From: Xenorhabdus eapokensis
GTDB lineage: Bacteria; Pseudomonadota; Gammaproteobacteria; Enterobacterales; Enterobacteriaceae
Reading direction: 5' to 3'
DNA length: 20,945 nucleotides
Assembly (NCBI RefSeq): GCF_001908105.1
Contig: NZ_MKGQ01000043.1
Coordinates: 1-20,945, forward strand
A model generated the notes under the pieces. That model did not search any database, was not told the origin of the DNA, and saw only the letters and a list, made by a program, of their open reading frames with translations. The position numbers were made by a program, and so were the translations under genes. Shown here piece by piece: positions 743 to 20,763 of the stretch. Position 1 is the stretch's first letter, and the number at the start of each line of letters is the position of its first letter.

Positions 743-874
743 TCAAGGGAATGGGTAGAGAAATATTTCATTTTAGTTTCAGAGGTTAATTAATTGTTAA
801 GCATTATTCGCTTGTTATTGGGTAAAAATGGAGTTAAATATGGCTGCAAATGTACTTACTTTATTGGGGTGGTT

Positions 875-1363
875 ATGCCAATCGCGCTAAAGGATTATGT
901 TGAGTATCTCGCTACTGGTCGATATAGGCATCAGTATGTCAATCCTCACGGCCCTCTTCTCCGTGAATACCAAAAAGCTAATGGGAAAACATCTCTATAT
1001 ATAACGACTCGTTATCCTCCATATTTAGTGAGTCCTGCAAATCCTCAGGAAGGTGATGCTGGAGTGACAAGTAGGATAAGAAAGCTTTGCTTTATTCCTT
1101 CTGATAATGGAACATACGCATTGCCAGAGCATGACTGTGACATAGGAATCTATTCATATATAGATATTATTGTACCAATACTGTCAAGAGTAAGCTATTT
1201 ACTCACCTCAAGAGCTGCTGCAACTGCATTTTTCATGCAATTAATGAGCGATCAAGATATTACCTATCATATTCAGAATTATTTTAACCAAGAACGCCTC
1301 TATGGAAGATTACCCCCTCAATTCAATCAACGCTTTACAAATTATTATCGATATCGTTATTGA
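875..1363 (+). CDS. Hypothetical protein, 162 aa, unrecognised
   Basis: This frame starts at ATG 875, preceded by GGGGTGG about 3-9 bases upstream. A longer version starts at TTG 794 behind AGAGGT and would add 27 residues; its N-terminus (LLL, two Cys, FIGVV) is less convincing. The protein is soluble-looking apart from one moderately hydrophobic helix-like segment near the middle (IDIIVPILSRVSYLLTS). It has many Tyr residues and a striking aromatic/basic C-terminus (NYYRYRY). I recognise no domain. It is an isolated gene on the plus strand between the iclR remnant and an ISAs1 remnant, so it is probably accessory-region cargo. Confidence 0.5.
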   Translation: MPIALKDYVEYLATGRYRHQYVNPHGPLLREYQKANGKTSLYITTRYPPYLVSPANPQEGDAGVTSRIRKLCFIPSDNGTYALPEHDCDIGIYSYIDIIVPILSRVSYLLTSRAAATAFFMQLMSDQDITYHIQNYFNQERLYGRLPPQFNQRFTNYYRYRY

Positions 1364-1649: not shown

Positions 1650-2623
1650 ATGATGAAAGCGACCTCTATCAGTCACGCCTTCGGGCATCTCAGCGACCCT
1701 CGGGTCAATCGAACTCAGCGCCACTCGCTTATCGATATTCTCACTATCTCAATTTGTGCCATCCTCTGCGGCTGTGAGAATTTCAATGACATTGAAGAAT
1801 ATGGAAAAACCAAAGAAGACTGGTTCCGGCAATTTCTGGCGTTACCTAACGGAATACCCAGCCATGATACCTTCAACGATGTCCTCAACCGACTCAACCC
1901 GCACGAGTTTAGCCACGCCTTTACCGCGTGGGTGAAAAGTCTGGCTCACCTGTCCGAAGATATTATTGCGTTAGATGGTAAAACAATGCGGAGCACACTG
2001 GATAAGGCCAGGGGGTTCCGGCTATCCATCTGGTGAGTGCCTGGTCGGTCGCCAACCAGCTTTGTTTTGGCCAAGTGAAAGTGTCGGACAAATCCAATGA
2101 GATCACCGCGATCCCCAAGCTGCTGGCCTTGCTGGATATCGAAGAGGCAACCATCACGATTGATGCGATGGGCTGCCAGCATCAGATAGCGGAGCAGATA
2201 GTGGCAGGTCAGGCGGATTATGTGTTGGCACTGAAAGGCAACCAGGGGGAATTTTATGAGGATATCAAACTGTTTTTAGATACCCATCTGGCCAATCACT
2301 TTGCCGGGATAGCACATGACCGAAACCGATGTGTCGAGGGGGATCATGGGCGTATAGAACAACGGCAGGTATGGCTGGTCAGTGATGTTGACTGGCTAAA
2401 AGAACGCCATCCACAATGGAAAACGCTGGGTGGAATTGCCGTGGTTGAATCTCATCGGGAAGTCAAAGGGAAAGCAGAGACGTATGAGCGACGTGACTAC
2501 ATCACCAGCCATCAGGCCAGAAGCGCCCAGTTTATCGCGTATGCAATACGCAGCCATTGGCAGATAGAATCGAAATTACACTGGCAATTGGATGTGAGTT
2601 TCAAGGTAGTAGACTCTTATTGA
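1650..2623 (+). pseudogene. ISAs1-family (H-repeat-associated) transposase, frameshifted and 3'-truncated
   Basis: Two consecutive frames make one ISAs1 transposase. The first (1650-2036) carries the N-terminal zone (HLSDPR, ILCGCENFNDI) and the first catalytic Asp in ALDGKTMR. The second (reading from about 2012 to 2623) continues with PAIHLVSAW, KSNEITAIP, TIDAMGCQ (second Asp), LALKGNQ and HWQIESKLHWQLDVSF, the zone containing the third acidic residue. The join is at the run of five G around 2009-2013, and one extra G would restore one reading frame. The end is also missing: after LDVSF the sequence becomes KVVDSY and stops, whereas family members continue for some tens of residues. No terminal inverted repeats could be defined. 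The copy is dead by both lesions. Confidence 0.88.
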
Positions 2624-11736: not shown

Positions 11737-12342
11737 ATGTCATTAGCTGTACCTTCTGTTGATTTCGGCCCTTTCACCGATGTCATTGCGTTTATCATGG
11801 AGCTGGATCAATTAAAATACGTCCATCGCAAAACAAAGTTATTGAATAATACGCGCCATGAAAACTCCGCTGAACATAGCTGGCATTTTGCTATTGCTGT
11901 GCTTGGCTTTGCTCCTTATGCCGGAGATGTGGACATTAGCCGCGTCGTACAAATGGCTTTGATCCATGACATTGTTGAGATCGATGCGGGTGATGTTATC
12001 GCGTTCGATCTGGCAGCCCGTGAAGCCATTCACGAACATGAAGTGAAAGCGGCTCACCGTATTTTTGGTTTACTACCGGAAACCCAGGGAAAATATTTTC
12101 TGGAACTTTGGCAAGAATACGAAGACGCCATCACACCGGAAGCGCGTTTTGCTAAAACCCTCGACAGAATTATGCCGGTATTTATGAACCTGCATAACGA
12201 AGGACAGAGTTGGGTTGAGAATAATATTCGTTTTGAGCAAGTTTACAACCTGCTCCACTTTGTTGCCGAAAGTTATCCTGAACTATGGAAATACCTGCTG
12301 CCTCAATTAGAAGCAGCAAAAGAAAAAGGCTGGTTGAAATAA
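11737..12342 (+). CDS. HD-domain phosphohydrolase (HDDC2/YfbR-like 5'-nucleotidase)
   Basis: A 201-residue all-helical HD-domain protein. Metal-binding residues are visible in order: H47 in AEHSWHFA, the HD pair H77-D78 with E81 (IHDIVEIDAGD) and D143 in TLDRIMP. This pattern is typical of the HDDC2/YfbR group that dephosphorylates deoxynucleoside monophosphates; the substrate here is inferred only. The start is ATG 11737 with GAGG seven bases upstream, 16 bases after ygfZ. The protein is likely cytoplasmic; I see no signal peptide. It is the last core gene before the accessory cassette. Confidence 0.85.
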   Translation: MSLAVPSVDFGPFTDVIAFIMELDQLKYVHRKTKLLNNTRHENSAEHSWHFAIAVLGFAPYAGDVDISRVVQMALIHDIVEIDAGDVIAFDLAAREAIHEHEVKAAHRIFGLLPETQGKYFLELWQEYEDAITPEARFAKTLDRIMPVFMNLHNEGQSWVENNIRFEQVYNLLHFVAESYPELWKYLLPQLEAAKEKGWLK

Positions 12343-12500: not shown

Positions 12501-12830
12501 TTATATTTTTACATATTTTTTTGGAGCATTTAGTGATTTTTTATAACAAGTAATATATCCGTTTTCTTTTAATTTTAAATCAGCGTGCCAAGATACAGGA
12601 AAGCTAAGAATAAAACCTAAAATACCAATAAATGTAAGAAATTTAAAAATTGAATTATTTTTTTTGGGCGTCTTTGAAAGAGATAAACAATAAAGTATTG
12701 AAATGCAAAAATAACATAACAAAGGATAAAAAAACAATATTGCAATCATCCGCCATGAAAAAACAACCACATCAGAATGATGATACAATAAAAAGAACAT
12801 TTTTATATAAAAAACATTTATTTTAATCAA
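12501..12830 (-). CDS. Small membrane protein, DUF1240-like, start uncertain
   Basis: The product is up to 109 aa, with two strongly hydrophobic segments (about residues 25-50 and 65-82) and a C-terminal tail reading ENGYITCYKKSLNAPKKYV. That tail (GYxxC then basic residues and a Tyr-Val) resembles the DUF1240 proteins common as multicopy genes in Photorhabdus, Xenorhabdus and Proteus; the resemblance is from memory. The listed start is TTG 12830 and the first ATG is at 12800. The reading frame stays open upstream to about 12903 without any ATG, so the normal N-terminus may have been lost by truncation. It lies 82 bases after the malY-like gene and could be co-transcribed with it. Function unknown. 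Confidence 0.45.
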   Translation of the reverse strand: MIKINVFYIKMFFLLYHHSDVVVFSWRMIAILFFYPLLCYFCISILYCLSLSKTPKKNNSIFKFLTFIGILGFILSFPVSWHADLKLKENGYITCYKKSLNAPKKYVKI

Positions 12831-12912
12831 GTAATAATAACATTCTAAAATTATGGATAACCCATTTATAAAGAATGTTTGTAACTTAACAGGATTCTTT
12901 TAGAGGTTAAAA

Positions 12913-14094
12913 TTAACACTCTTCAAATAACCGGCTTAACCGTTGCATAGCTACATTTAATATTGAACGGGAACATGCAAAATTAATTCGAGCAAATCCA
13001 GCATAATCAGAACCAAATTTTATACCGTCATCCAGCCACAATCGAGAATGATTAAGTAATTTGCCCTGTAAATTCTGTGGCTCAATACCACTATTTCTGA
13101 AATCTAACCAACCAAGATAAAGAGCATCAGATTCAAAAAGTTTAACTTGAGGAAGATGATCTAAATATTGCTTTAGAAACCTTCGATTATCACGTAAATA
13201 TATCAGTAATTCAGACAGCCATAGGTCCCCATAGCGATAAGCTGCTTCACAAGCAACAAGCCCCAACATATTTGGAATATGCAATGAACAACGCGCATAT
13301 GTCCGTTTCAGTTCATCACGTACTCTTTTATTGGTGATAAATAAATTAGAGGTTTGTAACCCCGCAAGGTTGAATGTTTTACTTGGGGAAGTACAAGTAA
13401 TGCAGATATCTGCAAACTCATCATGAATACTGGCAAAAGGTTGATGATACTTACCCATGGTCAAAATCAAATCCTGATGTATTTCATCAGAAATAACCAT
13501 AATGCCATGACGCAAACAAACATTTCCCATAGCCGTTAACTCTTCTTTACTCCATACATGTCCTATTGGATTATGCGGGTTACACAAAAAAAATAGTTTA
13601 GTTTTTGGTGTGATAGCAGCTTCAAATTCATCAATATCCAACACATAATTCGCTGTTTTCTCAATCAACGGTGCGGTTACTACATGCCGTCCATTAAGCA
13701 ATGAACAGTTATAAAAAGATCCATAAACTGGTGGCTGAATTAAAATATCATCCCCCTGTTGAGTAAAAGTCTGGATGATAAGACTAAGACTATTCACTAC
13801 GCCAGGAGTCTGTACAATCCACTCTTCCCTAATTGACCAACCGTGATGCTGTAATTGCCACTGTATTATGGCCTCAAACATATCATCACTGGCTCTAGTG
13901 TACCCCAATATTCCTTTATTTATAGCATCATGAAGAGCATTCAGAACTTCATTAGGACATTTGAAATCCATATCTGCGATCCATAGTGGGAGAGGAGGCT
14001 CATTAATACTATGCAATAAATAAGGTGATGGATACTGCCATTTGATTAAATGGGAATCTTTATGATCAATAATGTCATCAAAATCATAAGGCAT
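12913..14094 (-). CDS. PLP-dependent MalY/PatB-type C-S lyase or aminotransferase
   Basis: This is a 393-residue fold-type I PLP enzyme. The family opening PPLPLWIADMDFKCP, the cofactor-contacting CNPHNPIG (171-178) and SDEIHQDL (202-209), and the Schiff-base lysine K239 in TSPSKTFNLAGLQ are all present. This is the MalY/PatB subgroup, whose members mostly cleave C-S bonds in cystathionine or other cysteine conjugates, giving pyruvate, ammonia and a thiol. Some act as aminotransferases. It is the last gene of the five-gene minus-strand cassette, 44 bases after the exporter, which suggests a role in making or processing a sulfur- or amino-containing precursor. Housekeeping MalY or MetC activity cannot be excluded from sequence. 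Confidence 0.88.
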   Translation of the reverse strand: MPYDFDDIIDHKDSHLIKWQYPSPYLLHSINEPPLPLWIADMDFKCPNEVLNALHDAINKGILGYTRASDDMFEAIIQWQLQHHGWSIREEWIVQTPGVVNSLSLIIQTFTQQGDDILIQPPVYGSFYNCSLLNGRHVVTAPLIEKTANYVLDIDEFEAAITPKTKLFFLCNPHNPIGHVWSKEELTAMGNVCLRHGIMVISDEIHQDLILTMGKYHQPFASIHDEFADICITCTSPSKTFNLAGLQTSNLFITNKRVRDELKRTYARCSLHIPNMLGLVACEAAYRYGDLWLSELLIYLRDNRRFLKQYLDHLPQVKLFESDALYLGWLDFRNSGIEPQNLQGKLLNHSRLWLDDGIKFGSDYAGFARINFACSRSILNVAMQRLSRLFEEC

Positions 14095-14138
14095 ATGAGA
14101 TCCTACTATTTTCTAGAAAATATTTTTTATAAGCGATA

Positions 14139-15335
14139 TTAATCAGTATTCATAACTAAATTATTTATCTTATATACATATAGTAGTATCCAAATAGCTA
14201 TAGATAACAAGAAATAAGCAATTATCATTGCTCGCCAATCGCTACTCCAATAGGTCATAACAAGCCAAGCAATCAATGATGAAAATGACATCTGTATCGC
14301 TGCCATCATTGCAGATGCACGACCCGCCAAATGAGTAAATGGAGATAATGCAATAGCTGCACCTGTGCCAATCAGTATGGCAAATCCCAAACTTCCCAAT
14401 GTCGCCGAAATGAGATAGGGCCAAACTGAAATCTTAAAAAGATAAACAGTTAAAACAAAACCGATCATTGCCAATAATAACAGTAATGCACCGCTATTCA
14501 GCATTTTAGTTGCTTTAACAAGCCCTAAAAATTTAGCAGTCAACAGGCTACCAGCAGTGATAGCAACAGCATTAACAGAGAAATAATAACCAAATCTATC
14601 AACCGGAATATGTAACATTTCAATAAGCACAACAGGTGAACTGGAAAAGAAGATCAATTGAGACGCAAACCCCAAACTACTTGCAAAACATCCAAGCAAA
14701 AATTCAGGGTGACGCAACACTTTCAAATATCCTGAAAATACCGTTTCAGGCTGAAATACAAAATCCTGACATCCTTCAAGTAACGGTTTCCATAAAGCAA
14801 GAAAACAACATAATAGAGTGAAAACTCCCAATACGTAAAAGGTAGACCTCCAACCATAGTTCACAACCAATACGCCACCAATAATAGGAGCCAACACTGG
14901 CACTAGGCTGATTACACCATTAAGTATACTGAATACTTTCCCTATTACCGCTCCTTGAAAACGTAATGGGATACTGGCGAGAACGGAAACTCCCATCGCA
15001 CCCGCACCACAGCCTTGCATCAGCCGTAATACTATAATTAAAGAAAAACTATCAGCAAAATATACCCCCAAACTTCCCAACGTATAAAAAGCTCCGCCAT
15101 ATAAGAAAACACGCTGAGCTCCCAACTGATCAACCATCGGCCCAAAAAATAACTGACTTAAACTTAAGCACAATACAAACCCACTGATCAACCATTGAGT
15201 CATTCCCGGTAAACTATGCAGTTCACGAGATATCATTGGCATACCTGGCAGGCAAAGATCCAAACCTAATGGTGCAGCAATCACCAACGGAAATAGCCAG
15301 ATAAGTTGTACAGTAATATTTCTTTTCTGTGCCAT
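14139..15335 (-). CDS. MFS drug/metabolite exporter, Bcr/CflA-like (DHA1, 12 TM)
   Basis: A 398-residue inner-membrane protein with about twelve hydrophobic helices. TM1 carries LGLDLCLPGMPMI, matching the 'D.YLPA.P' signature of the Bcr/CflA group. The loop 2-3 motif A reads GPMVDQLGAQRV, and TM4 has RLMQGCGAGAMG. Proton-driven export of a drug-like molecule is the family role. The start is ATG 15335, which overlaps the upstream gene's TGA by one base (TGATG), so translation is probably coupled; a TTG one codon earlier is less likely. Within the cassette it is the obvious candidate exporter or self-resistance pump for the product. Confidence 0.9.
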   Translation of the reverse strand: MAQKRNITVQLIWLFPLVIAAPLGLDLCLPGMPMISRELHSLPGMTQWLISGFVLCLSLSQLFFGPMVDQLGAQRVFLYGGAFYTLGSLGVYFADSFSLIIVLRLMQGCGAGAMGVSVLASIPLRFQGAVIGKVFSILNGVISLVPVLAPIIGGVLVVNYGWRSTFYVLGVFTLLCCFLALWKPLLEGCQDFVFQPETVFSGYLKVLRHPEFLLGCFASSLGFASQLIFFSSSPVVLIEMLHIPVDRFGYYFSVNAVAITAGSLLTAKFLGLVKATKMLNSGALLLLLAMIGFVLTVYLFKISVWPYLISATLGSLGFAILIGTGAAIALSPFTHLAGRASAMMAAIQMSFSSLIAWLVMTYWSSDWRAMIIAYFLLSIAIWILLYVYKINNLVMNTD

Positions 15336-16849
15336 CAATTAAAAGTTTCCTCTAGTTTTGATATATTTTGTTTGCTACATAAACGACGATTGATCAGAGG
15401 ATTTAATTGATGATAGCGATGACTAATAGACTGATAGATTGCTGATATCAGAGTAGCACTAATTTCGTGTTTACTAAAATCCGACACCATATCCTTTGAT
15501 GAAATTTCTCCCCTTATACCAGAAATAAATTCATAAAATGCTTTAGCTTTGGACTTACCTTTTAAGCCCTTTCGTCCACCTTCCATATCGATGATATTAT
15601 CAATATCAATAACTTCAATATGCTTTCCACCAAGAATTTTATGGTTGCGAAAAATATAAATCTCCAAATGTTCCTTTGTGCCAATACGACGATTATTATA
15701 TTGGTTACCAATAGGAAACTCGTCTGATTTGTATGAATGAAAGTGAATCGACTGAAAAGGACCTTGCTGAAATATATGGGATTCATGAGCGACACGACCA
15801 TTTCCCCTATAAAGATCGCGACCAATTGCCGTTATCCAACTTCTCTGGGAATACCCATTATGACACAAATTTATAGAAGCTGCAGTTATCGTTCTATCTC
15901 CTCGTTTAAAACAAATATTGCTGCTACAATCAACTTCACCAAAAGTCCCTAACAATATTTTTAATTGATTCTCATCATAATTATTAACCTCATCAAAAGC
16001 TTGTTGACCAAACAATTTATGGTAATCATTTAAAGTAAATTGTCGAAGAACATCATCAGGCCGAATTGCTGTCGAGAATACATCAATATTATCGTATTCT
16101 TTTTCTTCGTTGATAGCAGCCTCTAATACAAAAGGAATAATATCAAAGTAGTGATAACCACTATGTGAACATTTTCCATATCCTTGATTATAAGGATGAT
16201 AATGTTGCTCCACTATTTCAGTTGGCATACGCCATTGTCCATCGGAATGAAAAGTTTGTATGTTTGTTACTGGACAATTAGTCATAGTAAAACATTCATT
16301 AAGACGCTCTTTAATTAAATTAAAAGATGTTTGATACCTCCTTTGTGCCATCAAAGAGAAAACCTGATATGGATTACTATGCTTTTTTTCCTGATATAGT
16401 GAATTAAGAAAACAGTAATCATCAGAAATTTTCATCGACTTTTCAATTGATGTAGAAATATTTTCATAAGAAGATATAGGTTTATCCATCAAGATAGATA
16501 ACCCTGCATTTAGAGCCCATTTAGCGTATTTTAAATGAGATAATGGTTCAGTTGCAATAACAACTCCATTAATAGAATATTTACATACAACCTCATTTAG
16601 TATATTTTTTTCATATGCACTTAATTCATCTAGATTACCATTCCCACCAAAATATATTACTTCTGGCTTCAGTCTCTTATCTGATAAATATAATTCAATA
16701 TTTGATTTTTCAGATATCAAATCTATTGCAGCACATAGATTCAGTTGAGGATTATCAATCTCACCTTCCAATAATGGATAGTATATTCTTTTCGCATGAG
16801 GACCAAACCCAATCAATAGTAAATTGACTATAAAATTATTATTCATCAT
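15335..16849 (-). CDS. Gfo/Idh/MocA-like NAD(P)-dependent oxidoreductase, unusually long
   Basis: A 504-residue protein. The N-terminal Rossmann fold has LLLIGFGPHAKR (G14, G16). At 120-125 LMDKPIS is the counterpart of the EKP/DKP motif holding the catalytic lysine (K123), preceded by VVIATEPLSHLKYAKWAL, also typical. After about residue 150 the usual beta-sheet C-terminal domain cannot be followed, and the protein is some 130-170 residues longer than common family members (330-380 aa). The C-terminal part is rich in His, Tyr and Arg (HYHPYNQGYG, SHSGYHYFD). The substrate is unknown; sugars, cyclitols and imines are used in the family. The start is ATG 16849, after a TTG at 16858 two bases downstream of the carbamoyltransferase stop. 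It ends at a TGATG overlap with the exporter. Confidence 0.78.
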   Translation of the reverse strand: MMNNNFIVNLLLIGFGPHAKRIYYPLLEGEIDNPQLNLCAAIDLISEKSNIELYLSDKRLKPEVIYFGGNGNLDELSAYEKNILNEVVCKYSINGVVIATEPLSHLKYAKWALNAGLSILMDKPISSYENISTSIEKSMKISDDYCFLNSLYQEKKHSNPYQVFSLMAQRRYQTSFNLIKERLNECFTMTNCPVTNIQTFHSDGQWRMPTEIVEQHYHPYNQGYGKCSHSGYHYFDIIPFVLEAAINEEKEYDNIDVFSTAIRPDDVLRQFTLNDYHKLFGQQAFDEVNNYDENQLKILLGTFGEVDCSSNICFKRGDRTITAASINLCHNGYSQRSWITAIGRDLYRGNGRVAHESHIFQQGPFQSIHFHSYKSDEFPIGNQYNNRRIGTKEHLEIYIFRNHKILGGKHIEVIDIDNIIDMEGGRKGLKGKSKAKAFYEFISGIRGEISSKDMVSDFSKHEISATLISAIYQSISHRYHQLNPLINRRLCSKQNISKLEETFN

Positions 16850-16859
16850 ACAATCCAAT

Positions 16860-18578
16860 TTATCTCTTTAAGTTAATTGGCTTTTTCTCTAGCATATAAT
16901 TACCAACAAATAATGCATGCATTCCGATCGCTTTTCTAAAGCAATCAATAGCATCGATAGGAGATTCAACAATTGGCATACCAGCCAAATTGAAGCTAGT
17001 ATTGAGTACTACAGGAACACCAGTAATATTTCCAACTTCTTTAATCAAATTATAAAATTTTTGATTCGAAGCAGAAGATACAGTTTGCAATCTGGCAGTA
17101 CCATCCACATGAATACAAGCAGGCATATCAAATTTAGCTCGCTCTTTGACAGGAGCGACTTTCATCATATACGGAACAGGGGATAGAATATCAAAATAAT
17201 TATCAGCATTTTCCTCTAATACCACAGGGGCATAAGGTCTGAACCACTCACGTAACTTAATTTGGCTATTAAGAATTTCTTTCGTCCAACTATTCGATGG
17301 CGAAGCAAGAATGCTGCGATTACCCAATGCTCTCGGTCCATATTCACTACGATCCTGAAACCAACCAATTATTTTACCATCAGCAATTAAATGTGCAGCT
17401 CGATACTCAGGATCACTTATTCTCTTAATAATAAACTCTTTTTCATAAACACGAACACTTCTCTCAATTTCATCTTCTGAATAAATAGGCCCTAAATAAG
17501 GTGAAGAGTTAAATTTAGGAATTCTACTATCTTTTTTCCAGAAATAATCAGCTGCCGCACCGAGAGCCAAACCAGCATCACCAGGAGAAGGAGGTACATA
17601 AACAGTAATATTCAGCTCCTCTTCCAGCTTACGATTCATTACTGAATTCATAGCCACACCACCAACAACACATAATGTATCAACATTATATTTATCAATT
17701 AATCCCTTCACCCGATGGATGATCGATTTATGCAATTGATCTTGAGCCCACGCTGCTAAGTGCATATCAAAAGGACGAATAACACCAGTCTTTAAGCGAC
17801 GTTCTGGAATGTCAATACCCTGCTTTTTAAACCAATTCCGAATATCTTTTATGCAATTTTCAATATAACCTTCATTCATCAGCGCAGAGACTACACCAGT
17901 ATCTGTTTCAATAAATGGTGAATAGTCTGAAAAAACATTAGGATCACCAAATGAAGCAAGTCCCATGGTTTTTCCTGATTCACGATAACTATCAAATCCG
18001 AGATAACAAGTCACGTCACCATAAAATCTTCCATAACCTTGATCGCAAGAATGCGTATTGTCCTGGGCTATCAGATACAAATTATCATTCTCATACAAAT
18101 AATAACTAACCTGTTCAGCTGCATTATTCTCTAACACTATAGGATCAGTTCTTTCACCAAGAATATTACCTGTGTGATCAGCAACAACAACCAATGCACG
18201 CTTAATATCCGTTTGACTAATAGCACTTAAGGCGTGGGCAGAGTGATGTGATTTCACAATATGGATATTGTCAAAACCAGGAAATAACGCATTTAATTCT
18301 TTTTTAAGGTTATCATCAAGAGTATCTAAGTCAATCATCGGCTGGCCAAAACTGACAACAGAAATCGCCGAAATATCATCTAGTAGCAGATTATTTCTTT
18401 CCAATATTTCCTTAACCGCATAAACAACGTGACCATCATATTTCTTCTTTGAAATCCGTTCTTCAGCTATTGCCATAATAACTTGATTTCTATCAGCCAA
18501 TACAACATTACCATCATAAGTCACAGTACCATCTGCTAGCATAGGAATATTAATAGCTAACACTACTTCTTTTTTCAT
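16860..18578 (-). CDS. O-carbamoyltransferase, NodU/CmcH/TobZ family
   Basis: A 572-residue enzyme expected to move the carbamoyl group of carbamoyl phosphate, through carbamoyl-AMP, to a hydroxyl of a small molecule. The Kae1-like N-terminal domain has metal-ligand-type HHSAH (H111, H115) with D134 (ADHTG). SCDQGYGRFYGDVT and ESGKTMGLASFG, then VVGGVAMNSVMN (304-314) and PPSPGDAGLALGAA (329-342), build the ATP site. The C-terminal YrdC-like part has EYGPRALGNRSILASP (412-427) and VLNTSFN (524-530). All expected motifs are present and the length is standard. The start is ATG 18578 with AAGG upstream, 21 bases after the methyltransferase. Relatives include NodU (nodulation factors), CmcH (cephamycin) and TobZ (tobramycin), i.e. 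tailoring enzymes; this supports a secondary-metabolite role for the cassette. Confidence 0.93.
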   Translation of the reverse strand: MKKEVVLAINIPMLADGTVTYDGNVVLADRNQVIMAIAEERISKKKYDGHVVYAVKEILERNNLLLDDISAISVVSFGQPMIDLDTLDDNLKKELNALFPGFDNIHIVKSHHSAHALSAISQTDIKRALVVVADHTGNILGERTDPIVLENNAAEQVSYYLYENDNLYLIAQDNTHSCDQGYGRFYGDVTCYLGFDSYRESGKTMGLASFGDPNVFSDYSPFIETDTGVVSALMNEGYIENCIKDIRNWFKKQGIDIPERRLKTGVIRPFDMHLAAWAQDQLHKSIIHRVKGLIDKYNVDTLCVVGGVAMNSVMNRKLEEELNITVYVPPSPGDAGLALGAAADYFWKKDSRIPKFNSSPYLGPIYSEDEIERSVRVYEKEFIIKRISDPEYRAAHLIADGKIIGWFQDRSEYGPRALGNRSILASPSNSWTKEILNSQIKLREWFRPYAPVVLEENADNYFDILSPVPYMMKVAPVKERAKFDMPACIHVDGTARLQTVSSASNQKFYNLIKEVGNITGVPVVLNTSFNLAGMPIVESPIDAIDCFRKAIGMHALFVGNYMLEKKPINLKR

Positions 18579-18599
18579 AATAGAACCTTATTTTTCAAT

Positions 18600-19421
18600 C
18601 TAATACTTTTTGGCACGTAGTAAAAACATTAATGGTATAGATAACAGTTTATCATCAAAGCACCACCACCCTTCTTCATTTTGTGACAACTGAGAAAAAA
18701 CCTTGTAGAAACTTTTATCAAATTCTTTAAATACAGTTAAATGAAGATTTTCATTCATCAAATTTGTTATTATTTCAGAAATGCTATGAAACCAGATATA
18801 TTGTTCCTGATTTTTTATCGGACTATCTCTATTCGCATAAGAATATTTATAGTTTGCTTTTATAGGTTTTCCAGAACTAGCATTCACAAAAATATTTTTA
18901 CTATTAAAAGGAGCATTATCCTGACTAGGGTTACTAAACATACGAGCAAAAGGATGTTCATCAACAATAATAAAATCCCCCCCTAACTTAAGATGTGAGG
19001 ATATTGTTTTCGCCCATAGGCTTAAATCTTGAAGCCAAACAAGAACTCCATACGAAGTATAAATAAGATCAAACTCACCAAGATTTAAAGAAGATAAATC
19101 ATAGACATTAGCACAATAAAAGTTCGTTTTAAGGCCAAATTTATTTTTGATTTTTTCCGCACAACCAATAGATAAAGAAGAATAATCAATAGCTGTGACT
19201 TTTGCTCCTAACATCTCAAGAGCTAAACTATCTAATCCAATATGACATTGTAAATGAAGAACTTTTTTCCCCTCTAAGTTTTCTAGTTCTGATAACTCTA
19301 TATTTTTTAATTTATATTTCAATGGATCATAATTATCAACATCATAATCAGAACAACTGGAATGTATCTGAGATAGTTCATTCCAGAACTTAATGTTCTT
19401 GTTATCATATAAAGATTCCAA
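18600..19421 (-). CDS. Class I SAM-dependent methyltransferase
   Basis: This is the first gene of the cassette, 273 aa. Motif I is VLHLQCHIGLDSLAL (54-68), a variant of the usual glycine-rich loop found in a subgroup of small-molecule methyltransferases, followed by VTAIDYS with acidic D79 for the SAM ribose. FDLIYTSYGVLVWLQDL is the motif IV/V region and LKLGGDFIIVDEHPFARMF is post-motif II. The start is TTG 19421: GGAG (19429-19432) is seven bases upstream, and no in-frame ATG lies between it and the preceding stop. The rare start may keep expression low. The acceptor (O, N or S) cannot be told. The gene is strongly AT-rich compared with the core genes, suggesting horizontal origin. Confidence 0.9.
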   Translation of the reverse strand: MESLYDNKNIKFWNELSQIHSSCSDYDVDNYDPLKYKLKNIELSELENLEGKKVLHLQCHIGLDSLALEMLGAKVTAIDYSSLSIGCAEKIKNKFGLKTNFYCANVYDLSSLNLGEFDLIYTSYGVLVWLQDLSLWAKTISSHLKLGGDFIIVDEHPFARMFSNPSQDNAPFNSKNIFVNASSGKPIKANYKYSYANRDSPIKNQEQYIWFHSISEIITNLMNENLHLTVFKEFDKSFYKVFSQLSQNEEGWWCFDDKLLSIPLMFLLRAKKY

Positions 19422-20382: not shown

Positions 20383-20763
20383 TAGATTACCCTATAAAGA
20401 ATAGTATTCCCGTTCGATGAAAGTCCCTATCACCTTATCGTGCATCTCCTCTGATTTGGAATAACCTATCGTCCTTCGGTTCAGTCTTTTTAAACGTGTA
20501 CGTAATGTCAGATTGGTTCTTTCTATACGTTGGGTATAATGTTTTCCAACAATATGTTTTTCTTCAGGAAGTCGGTTGTAAGGTGCATAATCATCCGTAC
20601 AGTAAAACCTGACATTAAAAGGTGATAATAACTCAAGGAGTTTGCGTAAAGTCGCCGTACTGCGATCACCAAAAACATGTGCCACAACTCGCTTGAGGCG
20701 AGGCTCCCAGGCATACCAGAGCCAGCGTTGATTCTTTTTACTTCTCACAAATGACCATTGCTG
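20382..20763 (-). pseudogene. insB: IS1-family element, 3' part of insB, interrupted by a group II intron
   Basis: The minus strand encodes the C-terminal two-thirds of an IS1 InsB transposase. It begins QQWSFVRSKKNQRWLWYAWEP with further conserved blocks VAHVFGDRS, LLSPFNVRFYCTDDYAPY, YTQRIERTNLTLRTRLKRLNRRT and SKSEEMHDKVIG, stopping at 20392. The sequence GTTAGATTACCC around 20381-20392 is the probable end of the element, about 10 bases past the stop as in IS1. Upstream (to the right) the insB frame is broken exactly where a group II intron 3' end appears. The DQQW/DEQW residue region of InsB continues into the exon, so the remaining 5' part of the IS should lie beyond the intron, outside the window. 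Confidence 0.87.

What the first reader, a model, noticed from the sequence alone, without database searches (positions are those of the whole stretch)
12913..19421. Five-gene coupled cassette that looks like an uncharacterised small-molecule biosynthesis and export locus
Seen: five minus-strand genes with gaps of 21, about 10, -1 and 44 bases, all visibly AT-rich, between core genes and nested IS debris. Known: NodU/CmcH/TobZ enzymes carbamoylate hydroxyls of secondary metabolites; Bcr/CflA pumps export drugs; MalY/PatB enzymes cleave C-S bonds or transaminate. Inference: together they make or tailor, then export, an O-carbamoylated and methylated compound. No NRPS, PKS, RiPP precursor or adenylation domain is present, so either the scaffold is a simple primary-metabolite derivative (sugar, cyclitol, amino acid) or it is supplied from elsewhere. 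I do not recognise a described cluster of this composition.
Basis: partly seen in the sequence, partly recalled or inferred. Interest (0 to 1): 0.75.

Follow-up and report, generated by a model that had tools for sequence, protein, structure and literature searches.

The report
Mobile five-gene metabolite-making and export operon
Five neighbouring genes in what appears to be a Xenorhabdus genome recur together, in the same order, in other bacteria and look like a compact kit that builds, decorates (with methyl and carbamoyl groups) and exports an unknown small, perhaps sugar-like, molecule.

Summary
In detail: five tightly spaced, AT-rich minus-strand genes at 12913-19421 encode a methyltransferase, a NodU/TobZ-type carbamoyltransferase, a divergent Gfo/Idh oxidoreductase, an MFS transporter and a PatB-type PLP enzyme. 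The same five genes in the same order occur in X. bovienii, X. doucetiae (two genes interrupted) and an unnamed Dickeya-like genome; the four loci lie at three sites and are under purifying selection. Methyltransferase, carbamoyltransferase and oxidoreductase look like the core: seven further contigs, one from a Chlamydiales MAG, appear to carry all three, and in one the first two are fused. The oxidoreductase is the surprise: a 507-aa branch of the Gfo/Idh fold with His where an ordinary member has Asp, in 129 of 129 sequences compared. Relatives occur in other islands of Actinobacteria, Vibrio, Patescibacteria and DPANN archaea, mostly without the other four genes. Best model: oxidise a sugar-like hydroxyl, possibly aminate, methylate, O-carbamoylate, export, as in aminoglycoside tailoring. 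Substrate, steps and product are inferred; nothing was assayed. Five literature searches found no description of this operon.

The parts
18600..19421 (-). Class I SAM-dependent methyltransferase (MT), 273 aa, TTG start; first gene
   Evidence: PF08241/PF13649/PF03848 above gathering; AF2 model pLDDT 89.1, generic class I MT fold; fused to the carbamoyltransferase in P0137
16860..18578 (-). NodU/TobZ-type O-carbamoyltransferase, 572 aa
   Evidence: PF02543 72.4 and PF16861 218.5, both above gathering; aligned to 7xb6 and TobZ with the HH..AH (TobZ only), EYGPRALGNRS-like and RP.AP stretches kept
15335..16858 (-). Divergent Gfo/Idh/MocA-fold oxidoreductase, 507 aa (longest ORF from TTG; ATG start at 16849 likely)
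14139..15338 (-). MFS (DHA1-like) transporter, 399 aa, presumed exporter
   Evidence: PF07690 129.6; nearest TIGR00710 184.8, below cut-off 200.9; overlaps the Gfo gene by 4 bases in all four loci with the starts used
12913..14094 (-). PatB/MalY-type PLP enzyme (C-S lyase or aminotransferase), 393 aa
   Evidence: TIGR04350 409.9, cut-off 340; best PDB match PatB 6qp3, PSKTFN motif kept
11737..12342 (+). HD-domain gene next to the cassette, marking the edge of the insertion site
   Evidence: PF13023/PF12917; a close match in 30 of 30 genomes of the genus of X. bovienii; HD-gcvP interval variable; gcvP itself lies outside this window
20392..20748 (-). IS1 transposase on the far side of the cassette
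   Evidence: PF03400 156.8

Best explanation
A horizontally moving five-gene operon for making or tailoring a small polyol or sugar-like metabolite and exporting it. Most likely chemistry, all inferred: (1) the Gfo-fold enzyme oxidises a hydroxyl of a sugar, cyclitol or nucleoside-type substrate taken from primary metabolism, using NAD(P); (2) the PLP enzyme may aminate the ketone, its least certain role; (3) the methyltransferase methylates the amine or a hydroxyl; (4) the carbamoyltransferase makes carbamoyl-AMP from carbamoyl phosphate and ATP and carbamoylates a hydroxyl; (5) the MFS pump exports the product. Methyltransferase + carbamoyltransferase + oxidoreductase looks like the inherited core; PatB and MFS accompany it in the four Enterobacterales loci read. 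Shown: gene families, order, conservation, constraint, different sites, a fusion, the fold. Inferred: every reaction, the substrate, the product. Confidence in a dedicated biosynthesis/tailoring-and-export operon is about 0.7; in a 3-keto/3-amino sugar route about 0.3.
For: All five genes, same order: X. bovienii L001 (72-79%), X. doucetiae L029 (85-91% by piece), unnamed Dickeya-like L034 (68-79%). Different sites: X. doucetiae has it between the HD gene and gcvP, the window next to the same HD gene; that interval is empty (about 210 bp) in X. bovienii, which holds the cassette elsewhere. dN/dS 0.11-0.18 against X. doucetiae and 0.07-0.12 against X. bovienii for all five, the latter rough because dS is 1.3-2.3. 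MT-carbamoyltransferase fusion P0137, apparently on the contig that holds Gfo P0018 (equal length). Distances of the three proteins correlate over 10 loci, r 0.90-0.95, Mantel p 0.0001. WlbA, GnnA and GenD2 are among the nearest solved folds of the oxidoreductase. Precedents: GenD2, GenS2 and GenN oxidise, aminate and N-methylate one sugar position (PMC4340712, abstract and passages); NodS and NodU N-methylate and carbamoylate the same sugar residue (PMC5080398, passages).
Confidence: 0.6

Rival explanations
1. The cassette decorates a surface polysaccharide or lipopolysaccharide sugar: a nucleotide sugar is oxidised, methylated and carbamoylated, and the MFS protein has an unrelated role.
For: WlbA and GnnA, among the best structural matches of the oxidoreductase, act on UDP-sugars (titles; LPS role recalled); carbamoyl and methyl groups occur on glycans (recalled).
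Against: Read by eye, no glycosyltransferase, flippase or polymerase gene recognised in the flanks of the window, X. bovienii, X. doucetiae or Dickeya-like loci; an MFS gene overlaps the oxidoreductase gene in four of four loci.
Confidence: 0.15
2. A detoxification or resistance operon: the enzymes modify (methylate, carbamoylate, oxidise, or cleave the C-S bond of) a foreign or self-made compound and the MFS pump expels it.
For: MFS nearest to drug-efflux models and a C-S lyase family member; sporadic distribution.
Against: Class III carbamoyltransferases are described as modifying secondary metabolites (PMC9633730, passages); none of the drug-efflux models listed for the MFS protein reaches its cut-off (25 of 37 matched families were shown).
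Confidence: 0.12
3. Same kind of operon, but the scaffold is not a sugar: an amino-acid or nucleotide derivative, with PatB supplying or removing an amino or thiol group. (These odds overlap with those of the best explanation, since both are biosynthesis-and-export.)
For: In Patescibacteria and DPANN contigs the oxidoreductase sits beside a thymidylate-kinase-like protein and a NUDIX hydrolase, or beside aminoacyl-tRNA-synthetase-like proteins; PatB-family enzymes act on amino acids (names).
Against: I did not see those neighbours in the Enterobacterales five-gene loci; many of the named entries in the top 50 of the fold lists are sugar or cyclitol enzymes.
Confidence: 0.25
4. No functional unit: genes that landed together in a plasticity hot spot and are decaying.
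For: gcvP is a published plasticity site (PMC3091717, passages) and the HD-gcvP interval is very variable; X. doucetiae has MT in two frames and PatB split.
Against: Identical order at other sites in X. bovienii and the Dickeya-like genome, constraint on all five genes, three-gene core in at least two phyla.
Confidence: 0.04

Closest known systems
GenD2-GenS2-GenN tailoring of gentamicin (PMC4340712)
   Different: Here the PLP enzyme belongs to the PatB family, the oxidoreductase has 507 residues and His in place of the usual Asp, there is a carbamoyltransferase, and I saw no aminoglycoside scaffold genes.
TobZ / NovN / GdmN class III carbamoyltransferases
   Same: Two-domain architecture and conserved stretches.
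   Different: Best PDB match 220 bits over residues 178-565 only; acceptor unknown; no companion antibiotic cluster recognised.
NodS-NodU pair of nodulation factor biosynthesis
   Same: A methyltransferase and a carbamoyltransferase that act on one sugar residue in Nod factors (PMC5080398, passages).
   Different: NodU equivalog model scored 151.5 against a cut-off of 1000; no nodABC recognised by eye in the flanks.
Kanosamine operon ntdCAB / kabCAB (PMC8788734, passages)
   Same: Small operon pairing a sugar 3-dehydrogenase with a PLP aminotransferase to make an amino sugar from glucose 6-phosphate.
   Different: No phosphatase gene here; methyltransferase, carbamoyltransferase and MFS added; sequences not compared.
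Gfo islands of Streptomyces, Kitasatospora and Embleya plasmids
   Same: Relatives of the oxidoreductase (33-36% identity) in a shared gene block in the six records opened.
   Different: Partners, as annotated, are CoA-ester lyase, MaoC, GNAT, phosphotransferases, Ldh-type and LLM oxidoreductases, PIG-L; none of MT, carbamoyltransferase, MFS or PatB found there by tblastn.

Membership tests
Class III O-carbamoyltransferase (NodU/CmcH/TobZ) | Carbam_trans_N and Carbam_trans_C domains above curated cut-off | tested here: met
   72.4 against 24 and 218.5 against 27 bits
Class III O-carbamoyltransferase (NodU/CmcH/TobZ) | Metal-binding His pair and C-terminal conserved stretches present | tested here: met
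   HH..AH aligned to TobZ (a 6-bit stretch), and the EYGPRALGNRS, RPYAP and LNTSFN stretches aligned to TobZ and 7xb6; metal role of the His pair as described for GdmN (PMC9633730, passages)
Class III O-carbamoyltransferase (NodU/CmcH/TobZ) | O-carbamoylation activity | not testable with these tools
   no assay
NodU proper | NF041651 equivalog cut-off | tested here: not met
   151.5 bits against 1000
Gfo/Idh/MocA oxidoreductase | PF01408 above gathering score | tested here: not met
   20.0 bits against 24; many relatives are listed with PF01408
Gfo/Idh/MocA oxidoreductase | Rossmann plus alpha/beta two-domain fold | tested here: met
Gfo/Idh/MocA oxidoreductase | Catalytic Lys of the (E/D)KP motif and DxxxH | tested here: inconclusive
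   Lys126 in DKP and His236 invariant, but His232 stands where an ordinary member has Asp, 129 of 129 sequences (register from a weak hhalign, E 0.26; motif recalled)
PatB/MalY C-S lyase | TIGR04350 subfamily cut-off | tested here: met
   409.9 against 340
PatB/MalY C-S lyase | beta C-S lyase activity rather than transamination | not testable with these tools
   no assay
Bcr/CflA efflux pump | TIGR00710 subfamily cut-off | tested here: not met
   184.8 against 200.9; MFS_1 met
GenD2/GenS2/GenN-type 3-amination route | PLP aminotransferase of the GenS2 family | not tested
   No GenS2 sequence compared; the protein here falls in PatB
GenD2/GenS2/GenN-type 3-amination route | 3-dehydrogenase activity | not testable with these tools
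   fold match only
Surface polysaccharide cluster | Glycosyltransferase, flippase or polymerase genes alongside | tested here: inconclusive
   None recognised by eye in the flanks held of four loci (1.5 to 13 kb a side); not scanned by HMM
Single operon | Co-transcription | not testable with these tools
   Spacing 21, 1, -4, 44 and similar in the other loci
Anti-phage defence system | Match to PADLOC models | tested here: not met
   No hit for four proteins; MT only a partial 36-bit hit (E 6e-10) to the methyltransferase part of mad2

The most novel reading that the evidence does not exclude
The 507-aa oxidoreductase belongs to an undescribed, widespread redox family (signature SDGQWRxP...QGYGKxxHSGYHxxD, with His in place of the usual Gfo Asp) that serves as an interchangeable core enzyme of unrelated cryptic metabolite islands: MT + carbamoyltransferase + MFS + PatB in Enterobacterales, PIG-L and phosphotransferase blocks on Streptomyces plasmids, kinase + NUDIX blocks in Patescibacteria and DPANN archaea, aminoacyl-tRNA-synthetase-like blocks in Omnitrophota, Parcubacteria and a Nanoarchaeales archaeon. 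The islands would make a related class of unknown metabolites, including in ultra-small cells not known for secondary metabolism.
Probability: 0.3. Interest if true: 0.75.

Novelty: new variant of a known kind. Interest (0 to 1): 0.5.

Why it matters
It points to a compact route to a carbamoylated metabolite with no NRPS, PKS or RiPP hallmark, so standard cluster finders may pass over it (none was run here), shared by Xenorhabdus and, by inference, Dickeya (insect and plant associates, recalled). The three-gene core reaches at least two phyla, so identifying one product would explain several orphan loci. The oxidoreductase family links these to islands in Actinobacteria and in DPANN and Patescibacteria genomes, which would make a question about small-molecule chemistry in those lineages testable.

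Tried and rejected
Defence system: PADLOC gave nothing useful. Phage or E. coli carriage: no match in the phage records or, at DNA level for 12850-16800, in the E. coli genomes. Two IMG/VR contigs carry a 34% relative (2 of 20 stretches). Plasmid carriage: ten records match the oxidoreductase; the seven opened hold none of the other four genes (tblastn). RNA element: only the tRNA-Gly. Promoter and terminator scans did not exceed shuffles. A first genome scan with the carbamoyltransferase alone confirmed none of 30 stretches; the oxidoreductase alignment gave 13 loci from 61 stretches. Metallophore analogy (MFS beside a dehydrogenase) was searched in papers and dropped for lack of support. A search for a Dickeya handle through pectate lyases (24 of 394 genomes) led to a genus with no oxidoreductase match, 0 of 25; a family draw then gave G759. 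Vibrio genus: 2 of 227, one the centre itself at 51% (the 2-gene form), one marginal with stops. Relatives of PatB and MFS were not searched in the protein database, as the three searches went to the oxidoreductase, carbamoyltransferase and MT, so how far PatB and MFS follow the core is unknown beyond the fetched loci. Contig sharing is inferred from identical lengths of the longest contig in the tables, not from the DNA, except in the four loci read. The tables list 120 proteins each of 1133, 7763 and 530 hits. Alignments used 35 of the oxidoreductase set and 36 of the MT set. Print searches for this operon: (4 papers; 16, 15 listed; 39, 20 listed; 1; 0), of which titles and abstract starts were seen; some searches were for precedents. 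Absence is from that library and those terms only.
Full report
What is there. Five ORFs on the minus strand, in transcription order MT 18600-19421, carbamoyltransferase 16860-18578, oxidoreductase 15335-16858, MFS 14139-15338, PatB 12913-14094. Gaps are 21, 1, -4 and 44 with the longest ORFs; GC3 is 0.21-0.32 against 0.40-0.52 in seven core genes of the window. Pfam and NCBIfam support a class I methyltransferase, a two-domain carbamoyltransferase, an MFS protein and a PatB-family PLP enzyme; the 507-aa protein matches PF01408 only below its cut-off. On one side lie a ygfZ-like gene (named by eye) and an HD-domain gene, with a DUF1240 gene between; on the other IS1 and another fragment. The window is probably Xenorhabdus: its HD protein is 80-99% identical to the best match in each of 30 genomes of the genus of X. 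bovienii.

Conservation of the unit. tblastn of the five proteins on fetched loci found all five, in the same order, in X. bovienii T228 (L001, 72-79%), in G012 (L029, 85-91% by piece), whose contig length equals that of an X. doucetiae protein record, and in the unnamed G759 (L034, 68-79%), taken to be Dickeya because its proteins resemble the Dickeya hits (inference). The oxidoreductase and MFS genes overlap by 4 bases in all four. All five genes are under purifying selection: omega 0.11-0.18 against L029 and 0.07-0.12 against L001, the latter rough at dS 1.3-2.3; synonymous sites are saturated against L034. In L029 MT lies in two frames, which could also be a sequencing error, and PatB is split at about residue 77 by an insertion that looks like an IS630-type element by eye; intact copies exist in the other three loci.

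Mobility. I fetched the downstream side of the HD gene from 28 of the 30 genomes (left out: G012, already held, and G029, at a contig end). The distance to gcvP was under 250 bp in 4 of 28 (L052, L057, L058, L060), and gcvP was not reached within about 10 kb in 6 of 28 (L038, L041, L042, L043, L051, L053; L042 ends with its contig). L060 is from X. bovienii, so its cassette lies elsewhere. In X. doucetiae gcvP follows MT directly; in the window the IS fragments follow and gcvP is not in view. gcvP is listed among the plasticity sites in PMC3091717 (passages). Distribution is sporadic. The oxidoreductase matched in 2 of 30 Xenorhabdus genomes, the centre G001 and G012; in 1 of 394 in an order draw, the centre itself; in 5 of 392 in a family draw, of which two at 74-77% (one the centre) and three at 27-33%; in 1 of 9 in the genus of G759, again the centre; in 0 of 25 in another genus; and in 2 of 227 in Vibrio, the centre and one marginal match. 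The genome nearest by the HD protein, G032 at 99%, has none.

The core. Protein searches with the oxidoreductase, carbamoyltransferase and MT return proteins whose longest contigs have identical lengths. Eleven carbamoyltransferase-oxidoreductase pairs were matched this way among 39 oxidoreductase and 30 carbamoyltransferase rows typed in. Adding MT (read), all three share contigs of 10396, 9275, 24626 (Aeromonas sp. MR16), 698249, 508727 and 158918 bases (a Chlamydiales MAG), and in a seventh, 13721, MT and carbamoyltransferase are one 846-aa protein (P0137). Equal length is not proof, but the Chlamydiales carbamoyltransferase and oxidoreductase also bear consecutive names. Pairwise distances of the three proteins over ten loci (window, L001, L034 and these seven) correlate at r = 0.95, 0.90 and 0.94, each with Mantel p = 0.0001; host relatedness may add to this. 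Against it: of 22 loci, one holds all five genes, one (Vibrio splendidus L010) oxidoreductase + MFS, one (L007) a distant carbamoyltransferase on the other strand, and the rest only the oxidoreductase (L013 also a weak MFS match).

Other genomic settings of this family. Streptomyces, Kitasatospora and Embleya plasmids carry it in a shared block with CoA-ester lyase, MaoC, GNAT, phosphotransferases, Ldh-type and LLM oxidoreductases and PIG-L, as annotated in six records. S. microflavus L009 has it near a ketosynthase-acyltransferase protein, WbqC and PIG-L. In Patescibacteria and DPANN contigs it stands beside a thymidylate-kinase-like and a NUDIX protein (by eye in L002, L004, L007, L008, L011, L012; confirmed by Pfam in L004 only), or between class II aminoacyl-tRNA-synthetase-like proteins and a radical SAM/SPASM protein (L003, Omnitrophota, by Pfam, one of the two synthetase-like proteins just below its cut-off; L005, Parcubacteria, by eye). 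L012 (Nanoarchaeales) also has two synthetase-like proteins. Distant relatives in three Enterobacterales genomes sit with citrate-synthase-like and nucleotidyltransferase-like proteins, and in L035 and L036 with MFS and AMP-binding proteins (L035 by Pfam, the rest by eye).

How it probably works. The carbamoyltransferase keeps conserved stretches of TobZ and 7xb6, so carbamoyl phosphate and ATP should give carbamoyl-AMP and an O-carbamoyl product (mechanism as in PMC9633730, passages). An MT beside a carbamoyltransferase recalls NodS and NodU (PMC5080398, passages). A Gfo-fold dehydrogenase with a PLP enzyme and a methyltransferase recalls GenD2, GenS2 and GenN, which act in concert on one sugar carbon (PMC4340712, abstract and passages), and ntdCAB for kanosamine (PMC8788734, passages). 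I therefore favour a small sugar- or cyclitol-like product, oxidised, perhaps aminated, methylated, carbamoylated and exported. PatB is the weakest link, since its family model is named for C-S lyases and it is split in X. doucetiae. None of these reactions was tested.

Verdict. It is an uncharacterised, mobile tailoring-and-export operon of familiar enzyme classes in a combination I found in no paper returned by five searches of the library, with an unusual oxidoreductase family as its most interesting part.

Noticed in passing
L002, L004, L007, L008, L011, L012: In Patescibacteria and DPANN contigs the oxidoreductase relative is repeatedly near a thymidylate-kinase-like protein and a NUDIX hydrolase (by eye; Pfam only for L004).
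   Followed up: partly
L003:537-5990, L005:1607-7132, L012:7405-9709: Class II aminoacyl-tRNA-synthetase-like proteins near the oxidoreductase, with a radical SAM protein in L003 and L005: possible amide-ligase pathway.
   Followed up: partly
L016-L021 (Streptomyces, Embleya, Kitasatospora plasmids): A shared block of about ten genes around the oxidoreductase relative on large plasmids, with PIG-L and phosphotransferases; product unknown to me.
   Followed up: partly
L035-L037: Distant oxidoreductase relatives in Enterobacterales beside citrate-synthase-like and nucleotidyltransferase-like proteins, and in L035 a TPP enzyme, an MFS protein and an AMP-binding enzyme: another cryptic island.
   Followed up: partly
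L029:13540-13640 and proteins P0255, P0263: In X. doucetiae the MT frame changes near codon 53 at a short run of A; the X. entomophaga-contig protein is also a 204-aa form that starts at the same internal Met, so a similar break may exist there.
   Followed up: no
L014, L015: IMG/VR viral contigs of 186 and 108 kb encode a 34% relative of the oxidoreductase.
   Followed up: no
window 1650-2623: Transposase-like ORF pair (DDE_Tnp_1_assoc and DDE_Tnp_1) split over two frames next to tRNA-Gly at 2643-2714.
   Followed up: partly
window 12501-12830: DUF1240 protein, 109 aa, GC 0.23, between the HD gene and the cassette.
   Followed up: partly
window 794-1363: 189-aa ORF without any Pfam match, near an IclR C-terminal fragment.
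   Followed up: partly
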